A stretch of 39,339 nucleotides of DNA, from the NCBI GenBank assembly GCA_025964115.1, contig JAOPZM010000091.1, positions 1-39,339 of the forward strand, in the 5' to 3' direction. The number at the start of each line of letters is the position of its first letter. Within the stretch, counting starts at the first letter, position 1. This stretch comes from Solirubrobacterales bacterium (GTDB lineage Bacteria > Actinomycetota > Thermoleophilia > Solirubrobacterales > Solirubrobacteraceae). This document shows positions 15,772-30,568 of this stretch, piece by piece. The notes below the pieces were generated by a model, which saw only the letters and a program-made list of their open reading frames with translations, was not told the DNA's origin and did no database searches. Both the position numbers and the translations under genes were made by a program.

Positions 15772-17493
15772 TCAAATCCACTCCACGGGCCGCGAGGGCG
15801 CGATGATCGTGCCGGCCCGCGTGTCAACGAGTCCTCGCGCGTTGAAGCGTGCGCCGGGCAGGCTGTCTGAGCCGATGTACAGCAGCGTCGAGATCGGATC
15901 GGCCAGGTCGTGCCCGAGCTCGGAGAAGAACCGGCCCGTCTCGTCCCAGAAGTCCAGGACCTGAGCGAAGGGGGCGGCCGTGAGCACCCCGCCTACGGGC
16001 AGCGTCAGCATGTGGAGCTCGCCGTCGCGCTGGTAAGCGATCCCACCCCCCGGTGCCATGACTGCATCTACGCAGCGGCCGATCGCGTCCGAGTCGCTCC
16101 CAATCGCCACCAGCAGTCGTCGTGGCGTCAACGTCGACGCGATGCCCTCAAGACGATCCGGGAGGCCGTGGATTGCGGCGCGGGTGAACGATTCCGTACC
16201 CGGGTCGATGGCGACGCACACAATCGGCTTGCCCGTGGCTGATCCCCGGCCGGGACGCACCATCGCTGAGGACTCCAACGATATGACCGGATCGTCTGGA
16301 GCGGCGCGAAACGTGGACGGTGACGGGCCACTCCGCCGCTCGCTCCAGCGCGGCGCGCCCAACGCCGCCCAATCGACGTCCGGGACGTCAATCAGTAGCT
16401 GGCCGTCGCGGGCAACCTCCTTGCCAAGGCTGAACACCCGCTCTGGAAACGGGTGCTCGGCATCCTCGAGCACGTTCATGCTTGCCAGCCGACCTGGCGC
16501 GACGACACCTAGGTGAGCGTCCAGCGAAAGGTAGGTGGCGGGTCGTCGAGTGGCGCAGGCGTACGCCTCCTCGGGTGACATGCCGGCGCCGAGAGCGGCG
16601 GCAATGGCTGCATCGATGGTTCCGTGACGGGCGATCCACGGCGGCAGGCTCCAATCGGTGGTGAACGCTGTCCGCTCGAAGGAAACGCCTGCGTCGATCA
16701 CCTCGGCAACGATCGCGGGGGTGTCACGGAGGAGGTCGGTGTACCGGATGAACGCCCAGAGGCCGCACCGAAGCCGCTCGATCAACTCATCGCCTCGCTG
16801 TGACTCGTGGTCGGCCGTGATTCCGGCCGCCGCTGCTACTCCGAGAGTCCGCCCCGATGCGCCGGGGCTATGCCCCTCCACACGGAGGCCCTTCGACCGG
16901 GCCGCCGCGATCAGGTCGGCTATCTCGGACGGGACCTCATCCAGCACCGGTCGCGTCATCAACTCGCCGATCTGTACGACGTCGGGTCGCTCGATCAGCT
17001 CCGAGATCGCCTCCAACGGAACTGTACGGGGCCCCTCGAGACGGAGTGACCAGCGGAGAACAAGCGGCAGCCGCTCGGAGATGTCAAGCATCGGCGGGTA
17101 CTGCCGAGGCGACAGGAATCCATAGACGAACGAGTCGTCGGAGACGATGCAGGTGGTGCCGTGTACCAAGGCCTGTCCGCAGTAGCTGCCCGTCGAGAGC
17201 GGCCCAAGCGTGTGACAGTGCGGCTCGACGTAGCCCGGCACGAGTGTCCTGCCACGAAGATCGACTGTGGCCTCTCCGGGCGCGGCAAGGTCCTGGGCGA
17301 CTGCCGCAATCCGCGCGCCGACGATTGCGACGTCCCGGGCGGCGAACTCGCCGGACGCGAGCAGCACCCGTGCACCCTGAAGGAGGAGGTCGGGCGGCCT
17401 ATGGCCCCAGGCCGTTCTGGTCCGCTCGGCGACTTCGTGCCCCGTCTCACGCAGCGGGCTGTTGGCGAATTCGGGCTTAGTGGACGGCATCAT
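15772..17493 (-). CDS. Adenine-deaminase-like amidohydrolase
   Basis: A 573-residue two-domain protein with the layout of adenine deaminase (Ade). The N-terminal amidohydrolase barrel has the metal motif PGYVEPHCHT, then VEGHSPGASGRTLG and ITADHES, which supply further metal His residues, and FTTDW for the catalytic Asp. The C-terminal Ade domain reads GGGIAYQRDGELHMLTLPVG and RFNARGLVDTRAG. Family Ade proteins convert adenine to hypoxanthine and ammonia. Here several hallmark positions differ: the usual REGS is RYTD, and TDD is TDW. The substrate may therefore not be adenine. It is cytoplasmic. Start ATG 17493 or 17490 (adjacent ATGs); the ribosome site is weak. A strong promoter and palindromic operator lie 140-190 bases upstream. 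Confidence 0.75.
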   Translation of the reverse strand: MMPSTKPEFANSPLRETGHEVAERTRTAWGHRPPDLLLQGARVLLASGEFAARDVAIVGARIAAVAQDLAAPGEATVDLRGRTLVPGYVEPHCHTLGPLSTGSYCGQALVHGTTCIVSDDSFVYGFLSPRQYPPMLDISERLPLVLRWSLRLEGPRTVPLEAISELIERPDVVQIGELMTRPVLDEVPSEIADLIAAARSKGLRVEGHSPGASGRTLGVAAAAGITADHESQRGDELIERLRCGLWAFIRYTDLLRDTPAIVAEVIDAGVSFERTAFTTDWSLPPWIARHGTIDAAIAAALGAGMSPEEAYACATRRPATYLSLDAHLGVVAPGRLASMNVLEDAEHPFPERVFSLGKEVARDGQLLIDVPDVDWAALGAPRWSERRSGPSPSTFRAAPDDPVISLESSAMVRPGRGSATGKPIVCVAIDPGTESFTRAAIHGLPDRLEGIASTLTPRRLLVAIGSDSDAIGRCVDAVMAPGGGIAYQRDGELHMLTLPVGGVLTAAPFAQVLDFWDETGRFFSELGHDLADPISTLLYIGSDSLPGARFNARGLVDTRAGTIIAPSRPVEWI

Positions 17494-19180: not shown

Positions 19181-22108
19181 CTAGACGAACCAGTTGATCT
19201 CGAGCGATTCTTCGCGGGTCTGCGTGATCGTCAGGGCCAGGCCCATCTGTTCGATCGCCGCTTCGCCGAATTTGGCTTCGAGCACGTCCGGCGTTCCGCC
19301 TTCGAAGCGTTCCGGTTTCTGTTTGCCGCCGCTCTCGACGTATTTGAGGATCTCCGAGGTCGCCATTTTCCCGGCCACGTCTTTCACGAGCACCGAGCCC
19401 ACGACCTGCACCGGAACGGTGCCACACGTGAATTCGACCAGTGGCCCGGTGTGCCCGATCGGGAAGAGATCGGTGGCGACGTGTTTCAGCGGTTTGCTTT
19501 CCCACCCGAGGACGCCTTCGAGCGTGCTCGTCACGACTTCGCCTTCGGTGAGGGCGCCGGCGGTCGTGCATTTGGTCGCCTGCGATTCGCACCCGGTGAG
19601 CGTCAGCACCACGCCACTCACGCTTTTCGGCCCGGTGAATTCGCCCGTGCCGGTCTCGCCTTTGCACGTGACGAGCGTTTTTTTGACGGTTTCGAGCTTG
19701 ATCGTCGTCAGTTCTTTGAAGGCGGTCGTGAATTTCGGTTTCGAACCCGGCCCCGACGCCCATTCGAAGCCGAATTTTTCGGCCGTGGCGGGAACCGTGC
19801 AGGAGGCGCTCGAATACGCGCCTTTGACGCCTTTGGCGAGTTTGATGCATCTTCCGACTTCCGGCGCGGCGAGCGTCGTGAACGTCTGATCTTCGCCTTC
19901 CCCCGTGCCTTTCGCGTTCGTCGCGACGATCCGGAAGTGGTAGGTGGTGCCTGCCACGAGCGGTTCCGCCGTGGCCGACACCGCCACGGGGAAGACCCCC
20001 GAGCCCGGCAGCGTCGTGCAGGGCACGCTGGAGCTGTAGGGCAGGGTGGTGCCGTATTCGAAGTGGCAGTCGGTCACGGACGAGTTGTTCGGGTTCACGG
20101 TGGCGTTCAGCTTCGCCGAGGTCTGTTTGATCGTCGAGGCCGCTCCCGTGACCGCCGTCGGCGCGGTCGGAGTCGGGCTCACGAACACCCATACCGCCCC
20201 TTTTTCGAGGTTGTCGTTGGGGCCGCCGATCAGCGCCGTGGACGCGTCGGCCGACAGCGCGACGCTGTTGCCGAAGAGGCCCTTGCCGCTCTCGCCGGTG
20301 CCCGTGAGCTTCGCGCCCTGCTGTTCCCAGATCGTCCCAGACCGTGTGAACACCCAGGCCGCGCCGATTTCGAAGTTGTCGGTGACCCCCCCGATCAGCG
20401 CCGTGTTCCCGTCGGCGGACAGCCGCACGCTGACCCCGAAATGGCCTTTGCCGGTCTCGCCGCTACCTGTGAGCTTTGAGCCCTGTTGTTCCCAGGTGAT
20501 GCCCGAGCGTGTGAACACCCACGCCGCGCCGATTTCCGTGTTATCGCCGCCGCCGGCGATCAGCGCCGTGTTGCCGTCTTCCGACAGCGCCACGTTGAAA
20601 CCGAGACGGGCTTTGCCCGTCTCGCCGCTTCCGGTGAGCTTGGCGCCCTGCGCTTCCCAGGTCGCGCCCGAGCGGATGAAGGCCCACACCGCGCCCACTT
20701 CTTCGTTGTCACCGCTGCCGCCGATCAGCGCCGTGTTCCCGTCAGCCGAGAGCGCGACGCCCACGCCGAATTCACCGGGCTGTTCGCTTGTGGTGATCTC
20801 CCCGGCTCCCGTGATCTTCGGGCCCTGCTGCGTCCAGGTCGCTTCCGTCCGGGTGAACACCCACGCCGCACCGACTTTGAAGTTGTCGCCCGGGGCACCC
20901 ACCAGCGCCGTGTTGCCGTCAGCCGCCAGCGCCACCCGGAAGCCGAGATGGCCTGCGCCTTTCTCGCCAGCGCCTGTCAGCTTCGCGCCCTGCTGCGTCC
21001 AGGTCCCTTCCGTCCGCGTGAACACCCACGCCGCACCGACTCCTTTGTTGTCGCCCCCGCCGCCGATCAGCGCCGTGTTCCCATCGGCCGACAGCGCCAC
21101 GCCGAAGCCGAAGTGGCCTTCGCCGATCTCTCCCGCGCCGGTGAGCTTGGCGCCCTGCTGCGTCCACGTGGTTCCCGAGCGCGTGAATACCCACACCGCG
21201 CCGACGCCTGTGTTGTCTTCGCTGCCGCCGATCAGCGCCGTGTTCCCGTCCGCCGACAGCGCAACGCTCCCGCCGAGATGGCCCTTTTCGATCTCTTCAG
21301 GGGTCCCGGTGAGCTTGCCGCCCTGCTGGAGGAACGGGTCGATCGACAGCGGATAGCGCGAGCCCCGGTCATCGATCCTGAGCTGCAGACCTCCGTGTCC
21401 GAGCTGCATCGTCGCGGGCAGCTGCCTGCCCGTCGCGTCGACTGCGCTCAGCTGGCCGTAGGTGAGCGCCGTGGCGCCCGAACGCGTCCGGAACAGGACC
21501 TGCCCGCCGGCCTGCCGCCCCACGAGCGTCCCCCCCATCCCGAGCGCCAGCACGAGTGCGCCGCCGCCCTGCGGGCGCGTGCGCACGTTGAAGGCCTGCT
21601 CCAAGCCATAGGGACCGTTCCGGTAGAGCTCATCGATCGATCCGCGGCCGTAGAGCACCTGGCTCCCTGTCGCCGAGGGTGCGGCCGTGCTCACGCGCTG
21701 GAGCTGCGTGCCGCGGCCGACGGAGGCGAGCGAGAGCTCGAGCGTCCCGGCGGCGACGCTCAGATGCGCCCCTGACGCGGCGAAGCTGGTCGTGATCGAG
21801 CCTCCGGCGGTCTGCAGCGAGTCGCCGTGGCGGACCGCCCAGTAGCCGCGCTCGGCGCGGCCGATGCTCGCCGAGGCCACGGGGGCGAGGCTTGCCGGCA
21901 CGTAGTTGCGGTGGCTGGCGGTCAATGAACGGGTGGGTGCCGCCCCAGCGTGCAGTGCCACGGCGATCGCGGCGACACAGGCGAGTGCCGCGGCAACAAC
22001 GACCAGGGCGGGCCTCTGCAGGCGCCGGAGATCCAGGCTGACGCCACGGGCCGATGCCGCGCCGCCATCCAGGCTCAACACTCCGCTCCGTCCACCCCTG
22101 CTCGGCAC
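19181..22108 (-). CDS. Giant secreted repeat protein: 7 propeller-like repeats, Fn3-like domain, six-Cys C-terminal module
   Basis: About 975 residues. An N-terminal hydrophobic segment (ALVVVAAALACVAAIAVALH) is a signal peptide or anchor. Residues 60-260 form a domain ending RIDDRGSRYPLSIDPFLQQG. Residues about 261-648 hold seven FG-GAP-like repeats of 54-59 residues, with the core VALSADGNTALIGG, then DN-x-x-GAAWVFTR and W-x-QQGAKLTG; this suggests a seven-bladed propeller. One Fn3-like domain (CHFEYGTT...YHFRIVATN) follows, then a 228-residue C-terminal module with six Cys ending in EINWFV. It is likely a cell-surface or secreted binding protein. The start is uncertain: GTG at 22108 (GGAAGG upstream) is preferred and GTG at 22081 is the alternative. 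The frame is open further upstream but overlaps the divergent Xre gene. Confidence 0.8.
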   Translation of the reverse strand: MPSRGGRSGVLSLDGGAASARGVSLDLRRLQRPALVVVAAALACVAAIAVALHAGAAPTRSLTASHRNYVPASLAPVASASIGRAERGYWAVRHGDSLQTAGGSITTSFAASGAHLSVAAGTLELSLASVGRGTQLQRVSTAAPSATGSQVLYGRGSIDELYRNGPYGLEQAFNVRTRPQGGGALVLALGMGGTLVGRQAGGQVLFRTRSGATALTYGQLSAVDATGRQLPATMQLGHGGLQLRIDDRGSRYPLSIDPFLQQGGKLTGTPEEIEKGHLGGSVALSADGNTALIGGSEDNTGVGAVWVFTRSGTTWTQQGAKLTGAGEIGEGHFGFGVALSADGNTALIGGGGDNKGVGAAWVFTRTEGTWTQQGAKLTGAGEKGAGHLGFRVALAADGNTALVGAPGDNFKVGAAWVFTRTEATWTQQGPKITGAGEITTSEQPGEFGVGVALSADGNTALIGGSGDNEEVGAVWAFIRSGATWEAQGAKLTGSGETGKARLGFNVALSEDGNTALIAGGGDNTEIGAAWVFTRSGITWEQQGSKLTGSGETGKGHFGVSVRLSADGNTALIGGVTDNFEIGAAWVFTRSGTIWEQQGAKLTGTGESGKGLFGNSVALSADASTALIGGPNDNLEKGAVWVFVSPTPTAPTAVTGAASTIKQTSAKLNATVNPNNSSVTDCHFEYGTTLPYSSSVPCTTLPGSGVFPVAVSATAEPLVAGTTYHFRIVATNAKGTGEGEDQTFTTLAAPEVGRCIKLAKGVKGAYSSASCTVPATAEKFGFEWASGPGSKPKFTTAFKELTTIKLETVKKTLVTCKGETGTGEFTGPKSVSGVVLTLTGCESQATKCTTAGALTEGEVVTSTLEGVLGWESKPLKHVATDLFPIGHTGPLVEFTCGTVPVQVVGSVLVKDVAGKMATSEILKYVESGGKQKPERFEGGTPDVLEAKFGEAAIEQMGLALTITQTREESLEINWFV
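20170..21325 (-). repeat. Seven tandem propeller repeats inside the secreted protein gene
   Basis: Seven near-identical coding repeats of 162-181 bases. A common core on the plus strand (GATCAGCGCCGTGTTCCCGTC and variants) recurs near 20227, 20393, 20556, 20718, 20899, 21061 and 21226. The fourth repeat counted from the N-terminus is 4-5 codons longer than the others. High DNA similarity allows copy-number change by recombination. Confidence 0.85.
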
Positions 22109-22249
22109 CCTGCACCACCCTTCCCAGTCCTTGACGATGCGCTCCCCGCCGATATGGGCCTGCCTCCAAGCTGGCCCACCGCTATCCCTTCGCGTCAAGG
22201 TAGCGGATATTGCCGTCCGAGGGAAACGCAATGATGGCTTTCGATCGGC

Positions 22250-22804
22250 ATGGAACGCCCTTCCGCAGTCATCGAGCAGCTTCGCGCCGAGCGCGGCCTG
22301 TCCCAGGGAGAGGCCTGTGCGCGCGGGGGTCTGCCGCCGGCGACCTGGAGCATGGTCGAGTCCGGCTTCACGGCGAACCCGCACCCCGCAACGAAGCTGC
22401 GGATCGCCCGCGCTCTCGGCGTGACGCCGAGCAGCATCTGGCAGATCCGACCCGGGCCGCTTCATCTCGAGGACGTCGACGACCCCCGCTGGAAGACGGC
22501 CGTGCGGGCGATGGCGCGGCGACTGGAGCGCGAAGGGTCCCTGCAGGAACGACGACGCTTCGCCAGGCACCTCGCCGCCGTCCTCGACTGGGCGGACCCG
22601 GGCGGCACCGGCGACTGGGACGCCGATGAAGGCCCGTGGGCGGAGTTCTGGCAGCTCGGGCACTCGCTGCTGTTCGACCCGGAGAAGGACCCGATCGCGA
22701 TCATCGAGGGCAAGCTCGTCGAGCGGGACCTCCAGAGCTTCACGCCCGAGACGCCCGTGCGCATGATCGCCGCCAGGCGCCGCACCGGCGACGGCGTCAG
22801 ATAG
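22250..22804 (+). CDS. Xre-family HTH protein with an unassigned C-terminal domain
   Basis: A 184-residue protein. The N-terminal Cro/C1 HTH (about 1-65) reads VIEQLRAERGLSQGEACARG, then TWSMVESGFTANPHPATKLR and IARALGVTPSSIWQI. The remaining 115 residues (RWKTAVRAMARRLEREGSLQ...EFWQLGHSLLFDPEKDPIAI) are helical and not recognised. It is probably a DNA-binding regulator with a small sensing or dimerisation domain. Start ATG 22250; the ribosome site is weak. It is divergent from the giant secreted-protein gene across a 141-bp gap and precedes the GGDEF-EAL gene in the same direction by 187 bp, so it may regulate either. Confidence 0.78.
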   Translation: MERPSAVIEQLRAERGLSQGEACARGGLPPATWSMVESGFTANPHPATKLRIARALGVTPSSIWQIRPGPLHLEDVDDPRWKTAVRAMARRLEREGSLQERRRFARHLAAVLDWADPGGTGDWDADEGPWAEFWQLGHSLLFDPEKDPIAIIEGKLVERDLQSFTPETPVRMIAARRRTGDGVR

Positions 22805-22991: not shown

Positions 22992-25583
22992 ATGCCCGAT
23001 AGCGAAACGCCCCAACACGACAACCCCACGGGCGACCCGACAGCCGCCCCCTCAGAGGCAGGACCCGTCAGCGGCCCTCCCGAGACGCCTGCTCAGCGCC
23101 CCGCCGAGCAGGTCGCCGACCCGCAGGCCCGCGACGCCGGCACTGCGGAGACGACGCCGGACGCTCCGGCGGTCGACCGCCTCACGCGGGTGAGGAATCT
23201 CGTCCGCAGCCGCAGGCTCGTGTGGGGCGCCGTGGCGCTCGTGTGCGTCGCGGCCGGGACCGTCGGCTCGATCCTCGGCGCCCAGACGGTGGCGCACAAA
23301 GATGCGAGCAAGGCGCGGCAGGCCTCGCGACAGACCTCGGCGGACGTCGCCTCCACGTTGAAGGCATCGGTCCAGCACCAGGAAGACTTCGCCATCGGCG
23401 CCACCACCTTCTTCGCCGGCAACCCCAAGGCGTCCCCCGCGGAATTCGAAGCGTGGGCGAAGTACGGCGACGGGTTCCACCGCTACCCCGAACTCGCGAA
23501 GCTCAGCCTCGTCACGCTCGTCCGCGCCTCAGAACTCCCCGCCTTCGAAGCGAAGATCACCGGCCGGCCGCTGAAACCGCCGCTCACAAGCCGCACCTTG
23601 AAAGGGCTGCGGGTGCAGTCCGCGCCGTCGCCGGGCTCAACCCTTCGGATCGTCCCCTCCGGCAAGCGTCCCGCCTACTGCTTCGTGATCGCCGGGCTTC
23701 CGAAGAGCGCCGCGAGGTACACGCCCCGGGGCCTTGACCTGTGCGCCGTGACCCCCGGTCTGCTCGACTCGCGGGACTCCGCGCAGAGCCTCTACACGAG
23801 CGTCTCCGCCAAGAACGTCGGCGCCCTCGGAATCGCAAGGCCGGTCTACAAGGGTGGCGTGCCGCCGACTGGCTTCACGGCCCGCAGGGAAGCCTTCGTC
23901 GGCTGGCTGCGCGAGGTGCTCCTGCCGACCGTAGTGCTGCAGCAGGCGCTGCAGGGCCACCCCGAAGCCGCCGTCCGCCTGCGTCACAAGACGGGCTCCT
24001 CGAGCGCGATCTTCACCGGCGGCACGCCCGGGCCCGGCGCGCAGAGCACCACCACGAACCTTCACAACGGATGGAGCGTCCGCAGCTTCGGCGGCCCCGT
24101 CGACGCCGCCGTGCTCGCCGACTGGCACGCGCTCGTGCTGCTGATCGCCGGGATCCTGCTGAGCCTCATGCTCGCCGTGCTCGTCGTCGTCCTCGGAGCC
24201 GGCCGCCCGCGCGCCGCGGCGCCGGCGGTCAAGCCCCGCGAGGTCCCCCACGAGGATCTCTACGACCAGCTGACCGGTCTCCCCAACCGCGCGCTGATGA
24301 TGGACCGCGCCCAGCGCATGCTCGCCCGCGCAAGCCGCGAGTCGGGACTGCTCGCCGGAGCGCTGTTCATCGACATCGACTGGTTTGAGAACGTCAACGA
24401 CAAGCTCGGGCAGGCCGCCGGAGATGAACTCCTTGGAACGGTCGCCGAACGGCTCGAGACGGTGATCCGCGCTCACGACACGGTGGGCCGGCTCGGAGGA
24501 GACGAGTTCGTCATCCTCGTCGAGTCGGCGGCCCGCGGCGCGCGGCTTGACTCGCTCGCCCGGCGCGTGATCGAGGCGCTGCACGAGCCGGTCAACATCG
24601 CAGGCTTCGGACCGAGCATCTTCCTGACTGCCAGCATCGGGGTCGCCTTCGGCCGCTACGCCACCCCCGACGATCTGCTGCGCGACGCCCACCTGGCCCT
24701 CGAGGCGTCGAAGGCCGCGGGGAAGGACCGCTACACCCTCTTCAACGCGAACATGCGCTCCGTCATCGAGGGGCGCGGCGTGCTCGAGACCGAGCTGGGC
24801 GCGGCGCTCCAGAGCAAACAGCTCTTCCTGATGTACGAGCCCGTCTATGACCTGACGAGCCGCAAAGTGGTGGGCCTCGAGGCGCTGCTGCGCTGGCGCC
24901 ACCCCAGCCAGGGCGTCCTCGGCCCCGAGCACTTCATCGCGCTGGCCGAGGAGACGGGGCTGAGCGTGCCGATCGGCCGCTGGATGCTCGAGGAGGCCGC
25001 CACCAAGGCCGCCGCGTGGAACGTGACCGGCCACAGGGTCAGCGTCTCGGTGCCCGTCACGGCGACCCAGCTGGCTCGGGACGGCTTCCCGACCGACGTC
25101 CGGCGGGCGCTCCTGCAGTCCGGGATAGAGCCCTCGCTGCTCACGCTCGAGATCTCAGAGAGCACAGTGCTGCAGGACATCGAGGGTGTCGCCGGGCGCC
25201 TGCAGGAGCTGAAGGAGCTCGGCGTGCGCATCGCGATCTACGACTTCGGCAGCGGCTACGCGCATCACTCCGACCTGCGCAGGCTGCCGCTCGACCTGCT
25301 CGTCGTCGACCGCTCCTCGCTCGCAGCCCCCGACGACGAGGACTACCGCAGCTGGCTGCTGCAGGCCATCCTGGTGCTCGCCAAGGACCTGTCGCTGACG
25401 GTGATAGCCAAGGGAATCGGCACCGAGCAGGAGATGATCACGCTGCAGACGATGGGCTGCACGCTCGCCCAGGGACCCTTCATGGGCTCGCCCGTCCCGG
25501 CGGAGGCCGTCGTCGAGCGGCTCTTCGACGCAGGCCTCGCGCCCGGCGGCATGATCGCCGAACGCGGCCAGTACACCCCCTGA
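22992..25583 (+). CDS. Membrane GGDEF-EAL protein with a degenerate EAL domain
   Basis: An 863-residue protein: a Pro/Ala-rich cytoplasmic N-terminus (1-75), TM1 (about 77-98), an extracytoplasmic CHASE-like sensor (about 100-375), TM2 (about 380-402), GGDEF (about 420-582) and EAL (about 592-845). The GGDEF site is intact: FIDIDWFENVND (459-470) and GGDEF at 502-506, with an RxxD inhibitory site (R493, D496), so c-di-GMP synthesis is likely. In the EAL domain E630 and E720 remain. However, the usual Asn is P688, the first Asp of DDFG is Y750, the Lys of LKID is V771 and the Glu of AEG is K807. Phosphodiesterase activity is therefore improbable, and it may bind c-di-GMP or act only as a regulator. 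The ATG at 22992 is preferred over TTG at 22971. Confidence 0.9.
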   Translation: MPDSETPQHDNPTGDPTAAPSEAGPVSGPPETPAQRPAEQVADPQARDAGTAETTPDAPAVDRLTRVRNLVRSRRLVWGAVALVCVAAGTVGSILGAQTVAHKDASKARQASRQTSADVASTLKASVQHQEDFAIGATTFFAGNPKASPAEFEAWAKYGDGFHRYPELAKLSLVTLVRASELPAFEAKITGRPLKPPLTSRTLKGLRVQSAPSPGSTLRIVPSGKRPAYCFVIAGLPKSAARYTPRGLDLCAVTPGLLDSRDSAQSLYTSVSAKNVGALGIARPVYKGGVPPTGFTARREAFVGWLREVLLPTVVLQQALQGHPEAAVRLRHKTGSSSAIFTGGTPGPGAQSTTTNLHNGWSVRSFGGPVDAAVLADWHALVLLIAGILLSLMLAVLVVVLGAGRPRAAAPAVKPREVPHEDLYDQLTGLPNRALMMDRAQRMLARASRESGLLAGALFIDIDWFENVNDKLGQAAGDELLGTVAERLETVIRAHDTVGRLGGDEFVILVESAARGARLDSLARRVIEALHEPVNIAGFGPSIFLTASIGVAFGRYATPDDLLRDAHLALEASKAAGKDRYTLFNANMRSVIEGRGVLETELGAALQSKQLFLMYEPVYDLTSRKVVGLEALLRWRHPSQGVLGPEHFIALAEETGLSVPIGRWMLEEAATKAAAWNVTGHRVSVSVPVTATQLARDGFPTDVRRALLQSGIEPSLLTLEISESTVLQDIEGVAGRLQELKELGVRIAIYDFGSGYAHHSDLRRLPLDLLVVDRSSLAAPDDEDYRSWLLQAILVLAKDLSLTVIAKGIGTEQEMITLQTMGCTLAQGPFMGSPVPAEAVVERLFDAGLAPGGMIAERGQYTP

Positions 25584-25585
25584 CG

Positions 25586-26403
25586 CTAGGCGCCTTCAGC
25601 CGGATCGGCGCCGACGTCCCGCAGCAGGCGGTTCGCCGTGTGCGCGTTGGCGGGATAGAAGGCCTCGATCGAGAGCTCCGCCAGCGTGATGTCGACGGCC
25701 GTGCCGAACGTCGAGAGCGTGCTGAAGAAGGCGAGCTCCTCCTCGCCGTCGCGCAGGCGCACCGGCAGCACGATGTCCTGCGAGCGGACCCGGCCCTGCG
25801 GTGAGCTGAGCTCGACGCCTGGGTAGCCGGCGAGCTCGTCGTGGAGGCTCTGCAGGCGCGGATCGGCGGTGACCTGCATCTCGCGGTGCAGACGCTGCAT
25901 CAGGTGTGCGCTCCATTCCCCGAAGTTCAGGGTCCGCGGCGCCATGCCATGCGGGTGAAGCGCGATGCGAAGCACGTTGGCCGGGGCCTCGAGCAGATCT
26001 GGCGAGACGCCCTCGAGCAGCGTTCCGAGCGCGTCGTTCGATGCCAGCAGGTCGTGATAGCGGTCGATCACGAGGGCGGGGTAGGGCTCGTGGGCGCGCA
26101 GGAAGCGGTCGATCGCTCCGCGCACGAGGTCCATCTCGGGCTCCTCGAGCGAGCGCTCGGTGTAGAGCGGCGCGAAGCCGGCCGCGAGCAGCAGCGTGTT
26201 GCGCTCGCGCGGCGGAACCTGGAGCTCCTCGGCGAGGTGGAGGACCATCTCGCGGCTCGGCCGGGCGCTCCCGTCTCGAGGAAGCTCAGATGGCGCGATG
26301 ACACGCCGGCGTTGAGCGACAGCTCCAGCTGGCTGAGGCTGCGCCGTCGCCGCCACGAGCGCAGCAGCTCGCCGACTGGAACCGGAGCGGCCGCGACTGC
26401 CAT
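25586..26403 (-). pseudogene. Xre/MmyB-like regulator broken by a frameshift
   Basis: Two overlapping minus-strand frames together make one regulator. The first (from ATG 26403) encodes the HTH: VGELLRSWRRRRSLSQLELS, then LNAGVSSRHLSFLETG. The family then continues with the R-x-RPSREMVLHLAEEL pattern, but this is found only in the other frame (SARPSREMVLHLAEELQVPP...). That frame goes on through the MmyB-like ligand-binding domain (HEPYPALVIDRYHDLLASND, GEEELAFFSTLSTFGTAVDI) to the stop at 25586. The shift lies at about 26265-26275 and behaves as a one-base deletion. Whole, it would be about 272 residues. It is either a recent pseudogene or a sequencing error. It is convergent with the GGDEF-EAL gene, 2 bases between stops. 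Confidence 0.85.
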
Positions 26404-26514: not shown

Positions 26515-29500
26515 CTAGACGAACCAGTTGATCTCGATCGCTTCGGCGCTCGTCTGGGTCACCGAGAGGCTGAGCCCCGCCTGTTCGAAGGGTCCCCCGG
26601 CGATGGACGCTTCGAGTAGTTCGTCCGGTTCGCCTTCGAAGTGTTCCAGCCGCTGCCTGCCGGCGAGCTGCACGTATTTCACGATCGTCGAGTTCGACAT
26701 GCGGCCCTCGGTGACGGGGGCGAGCACCGAGCCCCGGACCGTGAGCGAGGCCACGCCACACGTGGCTTCCGCGATGGGGGCCCCGGCTTCGGCCGGGAAG
26801 AGAGCCTGCGCGACGGTGTGTTCGGCCCTGCTTTCCCATCCGAGGACGCCCTGGAGCGTCTTCGTGACAATTTCGCCTTCGGCCGCTCCCATGCTGCTGC
26901 ATGGGGAAGCCCACGCTTTGCAGCCGGTGAAGTGGACCACGAGGCCGCCGACCGTCCGCAGGCCGGTGTATTCGCCCGAGCTCGTCTCGCCCGTGCACTT
27001 CACTTTGACCCTGCCGACGGTTTCGAGCGTAGGCACCGTTTCCGAGCGCGACGCCGTCGTGAACTGGCGGTTCGGGCCCGGTCCCGGCAGCCATTCGTAG
27101 GAGAAGCTTTCCGCTGTGGCCGGCGAGGTGCAGGTGCCGGTCGAGAACCTGCCCCTCGTGCCGCCCGGCAGCCGCACGCAGCGTCCGTATTCGGGGGCGC
27201 CTTCGGTCGTGAACGTCTGATCGGCGCCTTCCGATGCGCCGCCTGAGTTCGTCGCCTGGACGCGGAAGTGGTAGGTCGTGTTCACCTTCAGCGCCGTCAG
27301 CTGCGCCGAGACGGCGACGGGCGTGGAGCCCGCGCCCGGCGCCGGCGTGCAGGGCACGCTCGACCCGTAGGCGGTCGAGTTCCCGTATTCGAAGTGGCAG
27401 TCGCTGACTTCGCCCCCGTTCGGGTTCACCGTCGCGCCGAGAGCGGCCGTCGTCTGCTTGACGGCCGAGGCGGCGCCCGTTTCCACCGTGGGCCGGTTCG
27501 GCAGCGTGGAGAACTGCTGGTCGGACCCGAGGCTCGTCCCGCCGGGGTTCGTCGCGACGATCCGGAAGTGGTAGGCGGTGTTCGGTTGAAGGGCCGACAG
27601 CGCGGCCGTCACCGCCACGGAGCTCGAGGCCGACCCCGGTGAGGAGGAGCAGGGCGCGCTCGACCCGTAGGCCGTCGTCGTGCCGTAGTCGAAGTGGCAG
27701 TCGCTCAGTTCCGCCCCGTTCGGGTTCACCTTGCCGCCGAGGCTCGCCGCGGTCTGGGCGATCGATGAAGCGGCGGTGGTTTCCACCTTTGGCGCGTTGG
27801 GCAGCGTTTTCAGGGACTGGTCGCTTCCGAAGCTCGTGCCGCCGGCGTTCGTCGCGACGATCCGAAAGTGGTAGCCCGCGTTCGCAGTGAGCGCGGTCGG
27901 CTGGCCCGTCGCGGGCACGGGCGAGGTGCCTGATCCCGGAAGCGAGACGCACGGCACGCTCGAGCCGTAGGCTTCGGTGCTCCCGTAGTCGAAGTGGCAG
28001 TCGCTGACTTCGCCCCCGTTCGGGTCGACCGTCGCGTTCAACGTCGCCGAGGTCTGATTCAGCGCGGAGGCCGTACCCGTTTCGACCGCAGGGGCGTTCG
28101 GCAGCGTCGTGAAGCTCTGGGAGCCGTCGGTGCTCGTCCCGCCCGAGTTCGTGGCGACGATCCGGAAGTGGTAGCCGGTCACCGGGTTGAGGCCCGTCAC
28201 CGCCGCGGAGACCGCGACTTCACCGCTGCCCGACCCCGGGAGTGCCGAGCAGGGAACGCTCGAGCCGTAGGATTCGCCGGCGCCGTATTCGAAGTGGCAG
28301 TCGCTCACTTCGCCGCCGTTCGGGTTGACGGTCGCGTTGAGCATGGCCGAGGTCTGCGTCAGCGACGACGCCGGCTTGGTCACGACCGCCGGCCGGTTGC
28401 TCGACGCGGTCGTCAGCATCTGGTCGCCGCCGACTCCCATCCCCGCGGGGTTCACGGCGACGATCCGGAAGTGGTAGCTGCTCTTCGCGGCAAGCCCCGC
28501 CACGGGCGCCGCCACCGGCACCGGGCTCGAGGCCGACCCCGGCGAGGAGGAGCACGGCGCGCTCGACCCATAGGAGGCGGTCGTGCCGTATTCGAAGTGA
28601 CAGTCGCTGACTTCGCCGCCGTTCGGGTTGACCATCGCGTTGAGGGTGGCCGCGGTCTGGCCCACGCCCGAGGCCGGGTCCGTTTCGGCCGTGGGAGCGT
28701 TGGCCAGGGTCGAGAACGACTGATCGGCGCCTGGCGTCGTCCCGCCGGGGTTCGTCGCCCTGATCCGGAAGTGGTAGGCGGTGCTCGCCTTCAGGCCCGC
28801 GAGCGTGGCCGAGACCGCGACGGGGCTCGAGCCGGACCCTGGAGACTGCAAGCAGGCGACGCTCGACCCGTAGGAGCTCGATGTGCCGTATTCGAAGCGG
28901 CAGTCGCTGACGGCGCCACCGCTGGGATTGACGCTGCCGTTCAACGTCGCGGACGTCTGCTTGATCGAGGAGGCCGCGCCGGTTTCGACGATCGGCGGGC
29001 TGGAGCCCGGCGGGTTCGACGCGGGGCCCGGTTCGGGGTGCGGCGAGAGCAGGAGCGGGGGGCGCGGCTGCTGGCTGAAGTCGAAGTCGCTCGCCAGGTC
29101 GCCGAGGCCGGGGGCTTCTTCGCGGACGGTGGGACGGGCGTCGGGCCGTCCGTCGGTGGCGGGGTTCAGGCGGGCCTTGTTGAGGAAGGCGTCCTCGATG
29201 AACTTCAGGTAGGCGTCGTGGCTGAGGCGCTGATGGTCGATGAAGCCCTTCTTCGCGTAGGGGCTTATCACCAGGCCCGGGACGCGGATGCCGTAGCCGT
29301 TCTGGTCGACCACCGGCGGTGTGACGTGGTCGTAGAAGCCGCCGAGGTCATCCCAGGAGACGAGGATCGCCGTGGTGCCCCAGCAGGGGCTGCGCATGAT
29401 CGAGTTGACGAGCGTCGTGATGTAGCTCTGTCCCTTGGAGACACGGCTGGGGGGATGCTCGGAGACTTCCTGGCTGGGCACGACCCAGGAGACGTTCGGC

Positions 29501-30486
29501 AGGCCGCAGGTGCTCGTTTCGTGGATCGCCGAGTAGAGGCTGTTAATCGACTGGATGTTCCCCACCTGCCCGTCCTGCTGCACGTCGGTGAAGTAGGGAA
29601 GCTGGTTCCAGATGCTGATCGTTTTGGGCCCCTGTTTGACCGGTGCGCACGTGAGCGCTTCGTCGGCCTGGCAGTCGGGCTCGGAGCCTTCGAAGATGTA
29701 GTAGCGCCAGCTGACTTTCGCCTTGTAGAGGAGGTAGGTCAGGTCGGTGAAGGTGCGCGGGCCCTGCGCCACGCCGGCGGGGTCCAGGGAGCTCGTGCAG
29801 TCCATCGGGTTGGGATCCCCGGTGGGACAGGAGGCAGACCAGCCCGAGACGAGGAACAAGTGCTCGGGCAGGCTCCACGACGCGGCCGACTCGAACATGT
29901 TGTCCTGCAGTGTGAAGTTCTGCGCGTAGGTCCAATAGTTGGGAATCTCGCGCGCGTCGTGATAGCCCATCACGTCGAGGCAGTTGGTCTGCGAGGCTTT
30001 CGGGTTGCTGCACGGGAGGCAGCCCGCCGGGTCGGTGGTGCATTTGCTTTTTTCCTCCACCTGTTCGACGAAGCCGTCCATCCTTCCGCCGTTGACGTCC
30101 GAGCGCGTCGCGGCCATGCCGTGGGGCCCGCCGAAGTTGAGGTCGTTGGCGTTGTGGTAGGGCGCCACGCAGCCGCCGTTGAACGGGTCGTGGATGCACA
30201 CTTTTCCGGGGATTCCGTTGGCGCCCGGGTAGGTGCCGAAGTACGAGTCGAACGACCGGTTCTCCTGCATGATCATCACGATGTGCTGGATGTTGTGAAT
30301 CCCGTCGATCGGCGCCGCCTGCGCCCGGGAGGCCGCGCCGAGGCAGGCGAGCACCGCCATCGCGAAGACCGCCATGCGCGCCGAGAGGCCGCGAGACAGC
30401 GTCGGGCGTCCGACCGCGCCCAGCGCGAAGCTGGACCGTGACCGGTCCTGTCCTCCGGCTTGCGTTGAGACCCCTCTCACCGCCAC
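26515..30486 (-). CDS. Secreted phosphoesterase (phospholipase C / acid phosphatase family) with six Fn3-like repeats and a six-Cys C-terminal module
   Basis: About 1323 residues. The signal peptide (MAVFAMAVLACLGAASRAQA) follows a 37-residue N-terminal extension. The phosphoesterase domain spans about 58-470: HIVMIMQENRSFDSYFGTYP (catalytic ENRSFD near residue 75) and ILVSWDDLGGFYDHVTPPVV near 375 carry the motifs of bacterial phospholipase C/AcpA enzymes. These hydrolyse phosphatidylcholine-type lipids or phosphomonoesters outside the cell. Six Fn3-like repeats of about 99 residues follow (about 499-1095; DCHFEYG...YHFRIVATN...F-TL), then a 228-residue C-terminal module like that of the 19181 gene, also ending EINWFV. 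GTG at 30486 is chosen for GAAGGGA upstream; ATG at 30375 (start of the signal peptide) is the alternative. Confidence 0.88.
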   Translation of the reverse strand: MAVRGVSTQAGGQDRSRSSFALGAVGRPTLSRGLSARMAVFAMAVLACLGAASRAQAAPIDGIHNIQHIVMIMQENRSFDSYFGTYPGANGIPGKVCIHDPFNGGCVAPYHNANDLNFGGPHGMAATRSDVNGGRMDGFVEQVEEKSKCTTDPAGCLPCSNPKASQTNCLDVMGYHDAREIPNYWTYAQNFTLQDNMFESAASWSLPEHLFLVSGWSASCPTGDPNPMDCTSSLDPAGVAQGPRTFTDLTYLLYKAKVSWRYYIFEGSEPDCQADEALTCAPVKQGPKTISIWNQLPYFTDVQQDGQVGNIQSINSLYSAIHETSTCGLPNVSWVVPSQEVSEHPPSRVSKGQSYITTLVNSIMRSPCWGTTAILVSWDDLGGFYDHVTPPVVDQNGYGIRVPGLVISPYAKKGFIDHQRLSHDAYLKFIEDAFLNKARLNPATDGRPDARPTVREEAPGLGDLASDFDFSQQPRPPLLLSPHPEPGPASNPPGSSPPIVETGAASSIKQTSATLNGSVNPSGGAVSDCRFEYGTSSSYGSSVACLQSPGSGSSPVAVSATLAGLKASTAYHFRIRATNPGGTTPGADQSFSTLANAPTAETDPASGVGQTAATLNAMVNPNGGEVSDCHFEYGTTASYGSSAPCSSSPGSASSPVPVAAPVAGLAAKSSYHFRIVAVNPAGMGVGGDQMLTTASSNRPAVVTKPASSLTQTSAMLNATVNPNGGEVSDCHFEYGAGESYGSSVPCSALPGSGSGEVAVSAAVTGLNPVTGYHFRIVATNSGGTSTDGSQSFTTLPNAPAVETGTASALNQTSATLNATVDPNGGEVSDCHFDYGSTEAYGSSVPCVSLPGSGTSPVPATGQPTALTANAGYHFRIVATNAGGTSFGSDQSLKTLPNAPKVETTAASSIAQTAASLGGKVNPNGAELSDCHFDYGTTTAYGSSAPCSSSPGSASSSVAVTAALSALQPNTAYHFRIVATNPGGTSLGSDQQFSTLPNRPTVETGAASAVKQTTAALGATVNPNGGEVSDCHFEYGNSTAYGSSVPCTPAPGAGSTPVAVSAQLTALKVNTTYHFRVQATNSGGASEGADQTFTTEGAPEYGRCVRLPGGTRGRFSTGTCTSPATAESFSYEWLPGPGPNRQFTTASRSETVPTLETVGRVKVKCTGETSSGEYTGLRTVGGLVVHFTGCKAWASPCSSMGAAEGEIVTKTLQGVLGWESRAEHTVAQALFPAEAGAPIAEATCGVASLTVRGSVLAPVTEGRMSNSTIVKYVQLAGRQRLEHFEGEPDELLEASIAGGPFEQAGLSLSVTQTSAEAIEINWFV
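27241..28990 (-). repeat. Six tandem Fn3-like repeats inside the phosphoesterase gene
   Basis: Six coding repeats of about 297-300 bases. Each holds a conserved core (plus strand ...CCGTATTCGAAGTGGCAGTC..., encoding DCHFEYG) near 27394, 27691, 27990, 28288, 28585 and 28883. Each carries two Cys (in DCHFEYG and in the following SVPC/SAPC), probably a disulfide per domain. They probably serve as a spacer that holds the catalytic domain away from the wall. Confidence 0.85.
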
Positions 30487-30568
30487 CCCGAATCCCTTCG
30501 ACGTCGTGCGATGCAACCCGCGGGAATCTAACAGTTCCAATGCGTCCGCGAGCGCGCATACAGCTCGA

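What the first reader, a model, noticed from the sequence alone, without database searches (positions are those of the whole stretch)
22992..25583. Intact GGDEF joined to a degenerate EAL
The cyclase half keeps GGDEF and the inhibitory RxxD, but the EAL half lacks the key Asn, Asp, Lys and Glu (P688, Y750, V771, K807). It should make c-di-GMP but not hydrolyse it, with the EAL half acting as a sensor or brake.
Basis: partly seen in the sequence, partly recalled or inferred. Interest (0 to 1): 0.5.

Follow-up and report, generated by a model that had tools for sequence, protein, structure and literature searches.

The report
Membrane c-di-GMP protein, dead EAL domain
A soil-bacterium membrane sensor carries a c-di-GMP-making domain joined to a c-di-GMP-destroying domain whose catalytic residues are gone but which evolution has kept; this is a known kind of protein, here as a small duplicated family found in one genus.

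Summary
Window 22992-25583(+) encodes 863 aa with CHASE, GGDEF and EAL domains. P688, Y750, V771 and K807 stand where Asn, Asp, Lys and Glu belong. Two further EAL positions are changed (Q616E, E810G), so 6 of 12 active-site positions are lost. The protein belongs to a clade of nine ("A"), seen only in its own genus: 9 of 24 genus genomes, 0 of the other 208 in the order. The clade is monophyletic on a tree built without EAL columns (100/100). All nine lack the Asn and the AEG Glu. The EAL barrel is still conserved (mean pairwise identity 64%, intact paralogues 68%), so it is constrained, not decaying. Loss of phosphodiesterase activity is well supported. "Should make c-di-GMP" is weaker: the GGDEF motif and I-site are intact, but the clade has lost two near-universal GGDEF residues (His474, Asp567), and three of nine members have broken GGDEF motifs while all nine keep the I-site. 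Best reading: a CHASE-controlled GGDEF whose non-catalytic EAL (EALLR kept) is a c-di-GMP-binding or docking regulator. It is a new member of a known kind.

The parts
22992..25583 (+). whole gene, 863 aa, CHASE-GGDEF-EAL(degenerate), stop included
23217..23285 (+). first membrane helix, about aa 76-98
   Evidence: hydrophobic stretch read by eye; lies in the long N-terminal helix of the model; inference
23433..23984 (+). CHASE sensor domain, aa 148-331
   Evidence: Pfam PF03924 E 1.3e-6, over cut-off; model best matched by AHK4 sensor domain 3t4j, Z 17.4, rmsd 3.3, 235 aligned
24123..24200 (+). second membrane helix, about aa 378-403
   Evidence: hydrophobic; helix 313-338 of the model, whose residue 1 is aa 66; inference
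24261..24731 (+). GGDEF domain
24468..24479 (+). I-site R493-A-H-D496
   Evidence: kept in 9 of 9 clade-A rows
24495..24509 (+). GGDEF motif, aa 502-506
24411..24413 (+). Q474, where LGH has His
   Evidence: codon place computed from the aa number
24690..24692 (+). H567, where ADxALY has Asp
24792..25493 (+). EAL domain
   Evidence: confident barrel in the model
24837..24839 (+). E616 replaces the Gln of YQP (RocR Q161)
24879..24893 (+). EALLR (ExLxR), aa 630-634, retained
   Evidence: motif meaning from PMC10333796 passages
25053..25055 (+). P688 replaces metal-ligand Asn
25239..25241 (+). Y750 replaces first Asp of DDFG
25302..25304 (+). V771 replaces Lys of KID
25410..25412 (+). K807 replaces Glu of AEG
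25419..25421 (+). G810 replaces second Glu of AEGVE

Best explanation
The gene encodes a membrane receptor with an outside CHASE sensor and an inside GGDEF-EAL pair. It arose by duplication of an intact CHASE-GGDEF-EAL protein within one Solirubrobacterales genus. In the copy, the EAL domain lost its phosphodiesterase chemistry early (Asn and AEG-Glu gone in all nine members) but kept its barrel and gained a new, shared loop-6 sequence; this member also keeps the EALLR ligand motif. Most likely the EAL now binds c-di-GMP, or docks on a partner, without cutting it, and so tunes the attached GGDEF and/or signals to a target. The GGDEF of this copy is probably still able to bind nucleotides and may make c-di-GMP with I-site feedback, but cyclase activity is uncertain. 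Shown by sequence: domains, residue losses, one origin, continued constraint. Inferred: no phosphodiesterase activity (very likely), c-di-GMP binding by the EAL (likelier than not), control of the cyclase (open).
For: Six of 12 EAL active-site positions lost in the window protein. Asn233-equivalent absent in 9 of 9 clade-A members and Glu352-equivalent in 9 of 9, counting palsa_609 (L047/L105), whose two residues are read from a separate ORF fragment. Clade A is one clade on a tree without EAL columns: SH-aLRT 100 with 49 rows, bootstrap/SH-aLRT 100/100 with 30 rows. The EAL is still constrained: over 21 genome pairs carrying both copies, mean identity A 0.635, B 0.675; without G020 (15 pairs) 0.666 and 0.689; the CHASE differs far more, 0.407 against 0.581. 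No in-frame stop in the match of any clade-A row. Confident barrel, pLDDT mostly 80-94 over the EAL part. EALLR kept in the window; loop 6 is DFG[SN][GA]YA[YHR][HR]SDL in all 8 readable clade-A rows instead of DFGTGYASL. Printed precedents: FimX EAL binds c-di-GMP with 4 of 10 catalytic residues left (PMC3527489 passages); LapD has a degenerate EAL, an altered loop 6 and binds c-di-GMP (PMC3032553 passages).
Against: No binding or activity is measured. Q161 and R179 are cited as substrate-binding in RocR: R179 is kept but Q161 is Glu here. ExLxR is exact in only 5 of 9 clade-A members, and L065 has EAKPS, so ligand binding may not be a clade-wide trait. Matched counts show some relaxation: EAL sites invariant in 7 genomes, 81 in A and 107 in B. 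GGDEF motif broken in 3 of 9. No neighbouring gene is conserved, so no partner is suggested.
Confidence: 0.6

Rival explanations
1. Both domains are non-catalytic. The protein is a pure receptor or scaffold like LapD/FimX that reads c-di-GMP through the I-site and/or EAL and signals by protein contact, possibly outward to the CHASE domain.
For: I-site Arg and Asp kept in 9 of 9 while the GGDEF motif is broken in 3 of 9 (DEDEF, GGDQF, GDDRF); His474 and Asp567 lost in 9 of 9. Among 40 other rows three lack both His and Asp, and two of those three have broken GGDEF motifs. In the own genome, of 23 GGDEF hits only this one and a wholly degraded one (L022) lack both; L023 is partial.
Against: The window copy keeps GGDEF and the residues equivalent to PleD D327, N335, D344, G368, G369, E370, E371, K442. 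One relative lacking both His and Asp (L066) has an intact GGDEF motif.
Confidence: 0.3
2. The EAL half is a decaying leftover with no function; only the CHASE-GGDEF half matters.
For: Two relatives have no EAL at all: L078 (574 aa) and L079 (580 aa). EAL catalytic residues vary among clade members.
Against: EAL identity in clade A is close to that in intact paralogues and far above the CHASE; no in-frame stops; clade-specific shared residues in loop 6 and after KVD; L078 and L079 fall outside clade A.
Confidence: 0.08
3. The EAL keeps some phosphodiesterase activity despite the changes.
For: E630, R634, E720, E723, D751 and Q827 are kept. Full-length FimX with few residues left shows very weak activity (PMC3527489 passages).
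Against: Asn, first Asp, Lys and Glu all gone together, including three of the six RocR metal ligands named in PMC7911125.
Confidence: 0.04

Closest known systems
Intact CHASE-GGDEF-EAL paralogue in the same genome (L059, G000:C7:9097-11520)
   Same: same three-part architecture, 52% identity over query residues 27-845
   Different: all 12 EAL positions and all GGDEF positions canonical
FimX (P. aeruginosa)
   Same: GGDEF-EAL with catalytically weakened EAL; binds c-di-GMP (PMC3527489 passages)
   Different: REC-PAS protein with degenerate GGDEF; here membrane CHASE and intact GGDEF motif
LapD (P. fluorescens)
   Same: membrane receptor with degenerate EAL, loop 6 altered; Lys in place of a metal ligand (KVL) (PMC3032553 passages)
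   Different: HAMP and LapG-binding periplasmic domain, GGDEF degenerate, EAL glutamate lost; here CHASE, EAL glutamate kept. Model match 3pjw at 24% identity ranks below MorA
MorA and PA0575 of P. aeruginosa (4rnh, 5m3c)
   Same: best sequence and model matches over GGDEF-EAL
   Different: canonical EAL residues in the aligned chains
CHASE sensor of cytokinin receptor AHK4 (3t4j) and PcrK (6k62)
   Same: fold of the sensor, Z 17.4 (rmsd 3.3, 235 aligned) and 16.6 (rmsd 3.7, 236 aligned)
   Different: 16-19% identity; ligand not predictable

Membership tests
EAL phosphodiesterase (active) | EAL domain fold | tested here: met
   PF00563 E 3e-58; model matches EAL structures, e.g. 5m1t TM-score 0.92 by target
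EAL phosphodiesterase (active) | complete metal and catalytic residues (RocR E175, N233, E265, D295, D296, K316, E352) | tested here: not met
   N, first D, K, E replaced by P688, Y750, V771, K807
Degenerate-EAL c-di-GMP receptor (FimX/LapD kind) | EAL fold with catalytic residues lost | tested here: met
Degenerate-EAL c-di-GMP receptor (FimX/LapD kind) | ExLxR motif | tested here: met
   EALLR in the window; exact in 5 of 9 clade-A members
Degenerate-EAL c-di-GMP receptor (FimX/LapD kind) | binds c-di-GMP | not testable with these tools
   needs ITC or MST
LapD family | HAMP and LapD-type periplasmic domain | tested here: not met
   Pfam finds only CHASE, GGDEF, EAL at E <= 0.001
GGDEF diguanylate cyclase with I-site | GG(D/E)EF and RxxD | tested here: met
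GGDEF diguanylate cyclase with I-site | near-universal LGH and ADxALY residues | tested here: not met
   Q474, H567, E571; their need for activity is not established here
GGDEF diguanylate cyclase with I-site | makes c-di-GMP | not testable with these tools
   needs enzyme assay
CHASE sensor | CHASE domain between two membrane helices | tested here: met
   PF03924 over cut-off; fold match; helices read by eye and from the model

The most novel reading that the evidence does not exclude
Clade A is a metal-free c-di-GMP receptor made by swapping metal ligands for lysines. Lys stands at the Asn position in 5 of 9 members and at the Glu position in 6 of 9 (this copy has P688 and K807), much as LapD has Lys in its KVL. 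The ammonium groups would hold the phosphates where Mg2+ sat, turning a phosphodiesterase into a tight sensor that signals to its own cyclase or outward to the CHASE domain.
Probability: 0.15. Interest if true: 0.5.

Novelty: new member of a known kind. Interest (0 to 1): 0.3.

Why it matters
It gives a clean natural series inside one genus: intact GGDEF-EAL, degenerate EAL, and EAL-less relatives with the same CHASE sensor. That makes it possible to test how a c-di-GMP phosphodiesterase turns into a regulator after gene duplication. The single protein is otherwise ordinary: GGDEF proteins with dead EAL domains are widely known.

Tried and rejected
A conserved partner gene was sought by all-against-all comparison of ORFs of 80 aa or more in the window (10001-39339), L099-L106 and three intact-copy loci. 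Apart from the gene itself and its antisense shadows, mainly repeat-protein similarity (FG-GAP/fn3 type) and a few single-locus matches were seen, so no operon or partner was claimed. The first genome-contig scan with the single protein found nothing. A first residue table was wrong because minus-strand loci were read on the wrong strand; it was replaced. In one search the 'D' for L047 at the Asn position is out of frame: the contig has N runs, and a separate ORF fragment reads Lys there and Thr at the Glu position. Searches of the held library for 'Solirubrobacter', GGDEF and EAL, and for 'CHASE domain' with GGDEF, EAL, c-di-GMP and Actinobacteria found no paper. Two primary papers on EAL residues (PMC2945410, PMC2394985) are not held. 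dN/dS was not computed: at these distances synonymous sites would be saturated.

Full report
What is there. The window's ORF 22992-25583(+) encodes 863 aa. Pfam finds CHASE (148-331), GGDEF (424-580) and EAL (601-834), all over the curated cut-offs. The start at ATG 22992 is favoured because orthologues L038 and L040 share the N-terminal MxxSExPQ stretch. The window is contig C78 of a 2.99 Mb, 265-contig assembly, 84.6% complete. Named records of its closest relatives are Solirubrobacterales and Solirubrobacteraceae MAGs.

The residues. Counting from the EAL glutamate E630, their spacings match RocR N233, D295, K316, E352; RocR numbers other than K316 are from passages of PMC7911125, K316 is recalled. 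Q616 to E and E810 to G are further changes. Kept are E630, R634, E720, E723, D751 and Q827. Of 13 EAL domains in the own genome, 10 keep all 12 positions, one loses 1, one loses 2, this one loses 6.

A clade, not a single accident. Searching 24 genomes of the genus and building trees on the CHASE and GGDEF columns only puts nine proteins in one clade, A: L037 (window), L038, L039, L040, L041, L043, L046, L047, L065 (SH-aLRT 100, 49 rows; 100/100, 30 rows). It attaches next to or among the intact paralogues of the same genus (B, 14 rows); the exact branching is unresolved. The profile search of 232 genomes of the order gives a clean gap: eight matches at 775-838 bits, all clade A, then 615 bits and below, the first of these being an intact copy; the ninth, G001, is a partial match at 460 bits. 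Only seven candidates per genome were scored there. So clade A was seen in 9 of 24 genus genomes and in none of the other 208. Seven genomes carry both A and B.

What the clade has lost. The Asn position reads P, K, E, M, K, K, Q, K in the eight complete rows, and K in the ninth from a separate ORF fragment. The AEG Glu reads K, N, K, K, K, T, K, K, and T in that fragment. The first Asp is lost only in the window copy and the Lys only there and in L065 (Arg), among the eight rows that can be read, so the window protein is the most degenerate. The Asp-to-Tyr change needs one base and is seen in one metagenome assembly only, so that residue alone could be an error; the clade-wide losses could not.

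Constraint. For the 21 pairs of genomes with both copies, mean identity is: EAL 0.635 (A) and 0.675 (B); GGDEF 0.693 and 0.732; CHASE 0.407 and 0.581. Without the fast G020 copy (15 pairs) the EAL values are 0.666 and 0.689. Counting sites invariant in seven genomes, A has 81 and B 107 in the EAL, so there is mild relaxation but not free decay. The loop-6 motif DFGTGYASL of B is replaced by DFG[SN][GA]YA[YHR][HR]SDL in all eight readable A rows. That loop is called a switch loop in LapD, where its consensus is also not conserved (PMC3032553 passages). AlphaFold models the EAL part as a confident barrel; the one EAL stretch under pLDDT 50 after the domain's start (model 342-344, aa 753-755) is in this loop.

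The GGDEF half. The window copy keeps GGDEF, RxxD and the residues equivalent to PleD D327, N335, D344, G368-E371 and K442. But all nine clade members have lost the His of LGH and the Asp of ADxALY, which are present in 37 and 36 of 40 other rows. Three other rows lack both, and two of these have broken GGDEF motifs. In clade A the motif itself is intact in five, SGDEF in one (a form said to keep activity, PMC10333796 passages) and broken in three. The I-site pair is kept in all nine. So cyclase activity is possible here but is not the shared property of the clade.

Sensor and surroundings. The CHASE model matches the AHK4 cytokinin-sensor domain best (Z 17.4, rmsd 3.3, 235 aligned, 16% identity). 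That identifies the fold, not the ligand. Neighbouring genes are not conserved between clade members, so the protein probably acts in trans or on itself.

Judgement. The closest printed precedents are FimX and LapD, both with weakened or dead EAL domains that bind c-di-GMP (passages). A review lists ExLxR as the determinant of binding in degenerate EALs (passages); the window has EALLR, five of nine members have the motif exactly. I therefore favour a non-catalytic EAL kept as a c-di-GMP-binding or docking regulator of a CHASE-GGDEF protein. Shown: residue losses, single origin, constraint. Inferred: no hydrolysis (very likely), c-di-GMP binding (likelier than not), sign of regulation (unknown).

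Noticed in passing
L078 (G004:C59:6806-8323) and L079 (G009:C29:11156-12739): Relatives of 574 and 580 aa with CHASE and GGDEF but no EAL at all, outside clade A and not each other's nearest kin; the EAL may have been lost more than once in this genus.
   Followed up: partly
L085 (G022) and L086 (G023): Opposite case: GGDEF motif broken (TGARF, ADCEF) with the His and Asp positions changed, while the EAL half keeps its active-site positions.
   Followed up: no
L034 (G000:C214): Another partly degenerate EAL in the same genome: second Asp to Asn and AEG Glu to Val.
   Followed up: no
window 25586-26356 (-): Convergent neighbour with MmyB-like ligand-binding domain (PF17765), probably an XRE-type regulator; not conserved next to the other clade-A genes.
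   Followed up: partly
window 26515-30540 (-) and 19181-22663 (-): Two long genes flank the region: a phosphoesterase with fibronectin type III repeats (1341 aa) and an FG-GAP repeat protein (1160 aa).
   Followed up: no
window 15772-17493 (-): Amidohydrolase with adenine deaminase C-terminal domain.
   Followed up: no
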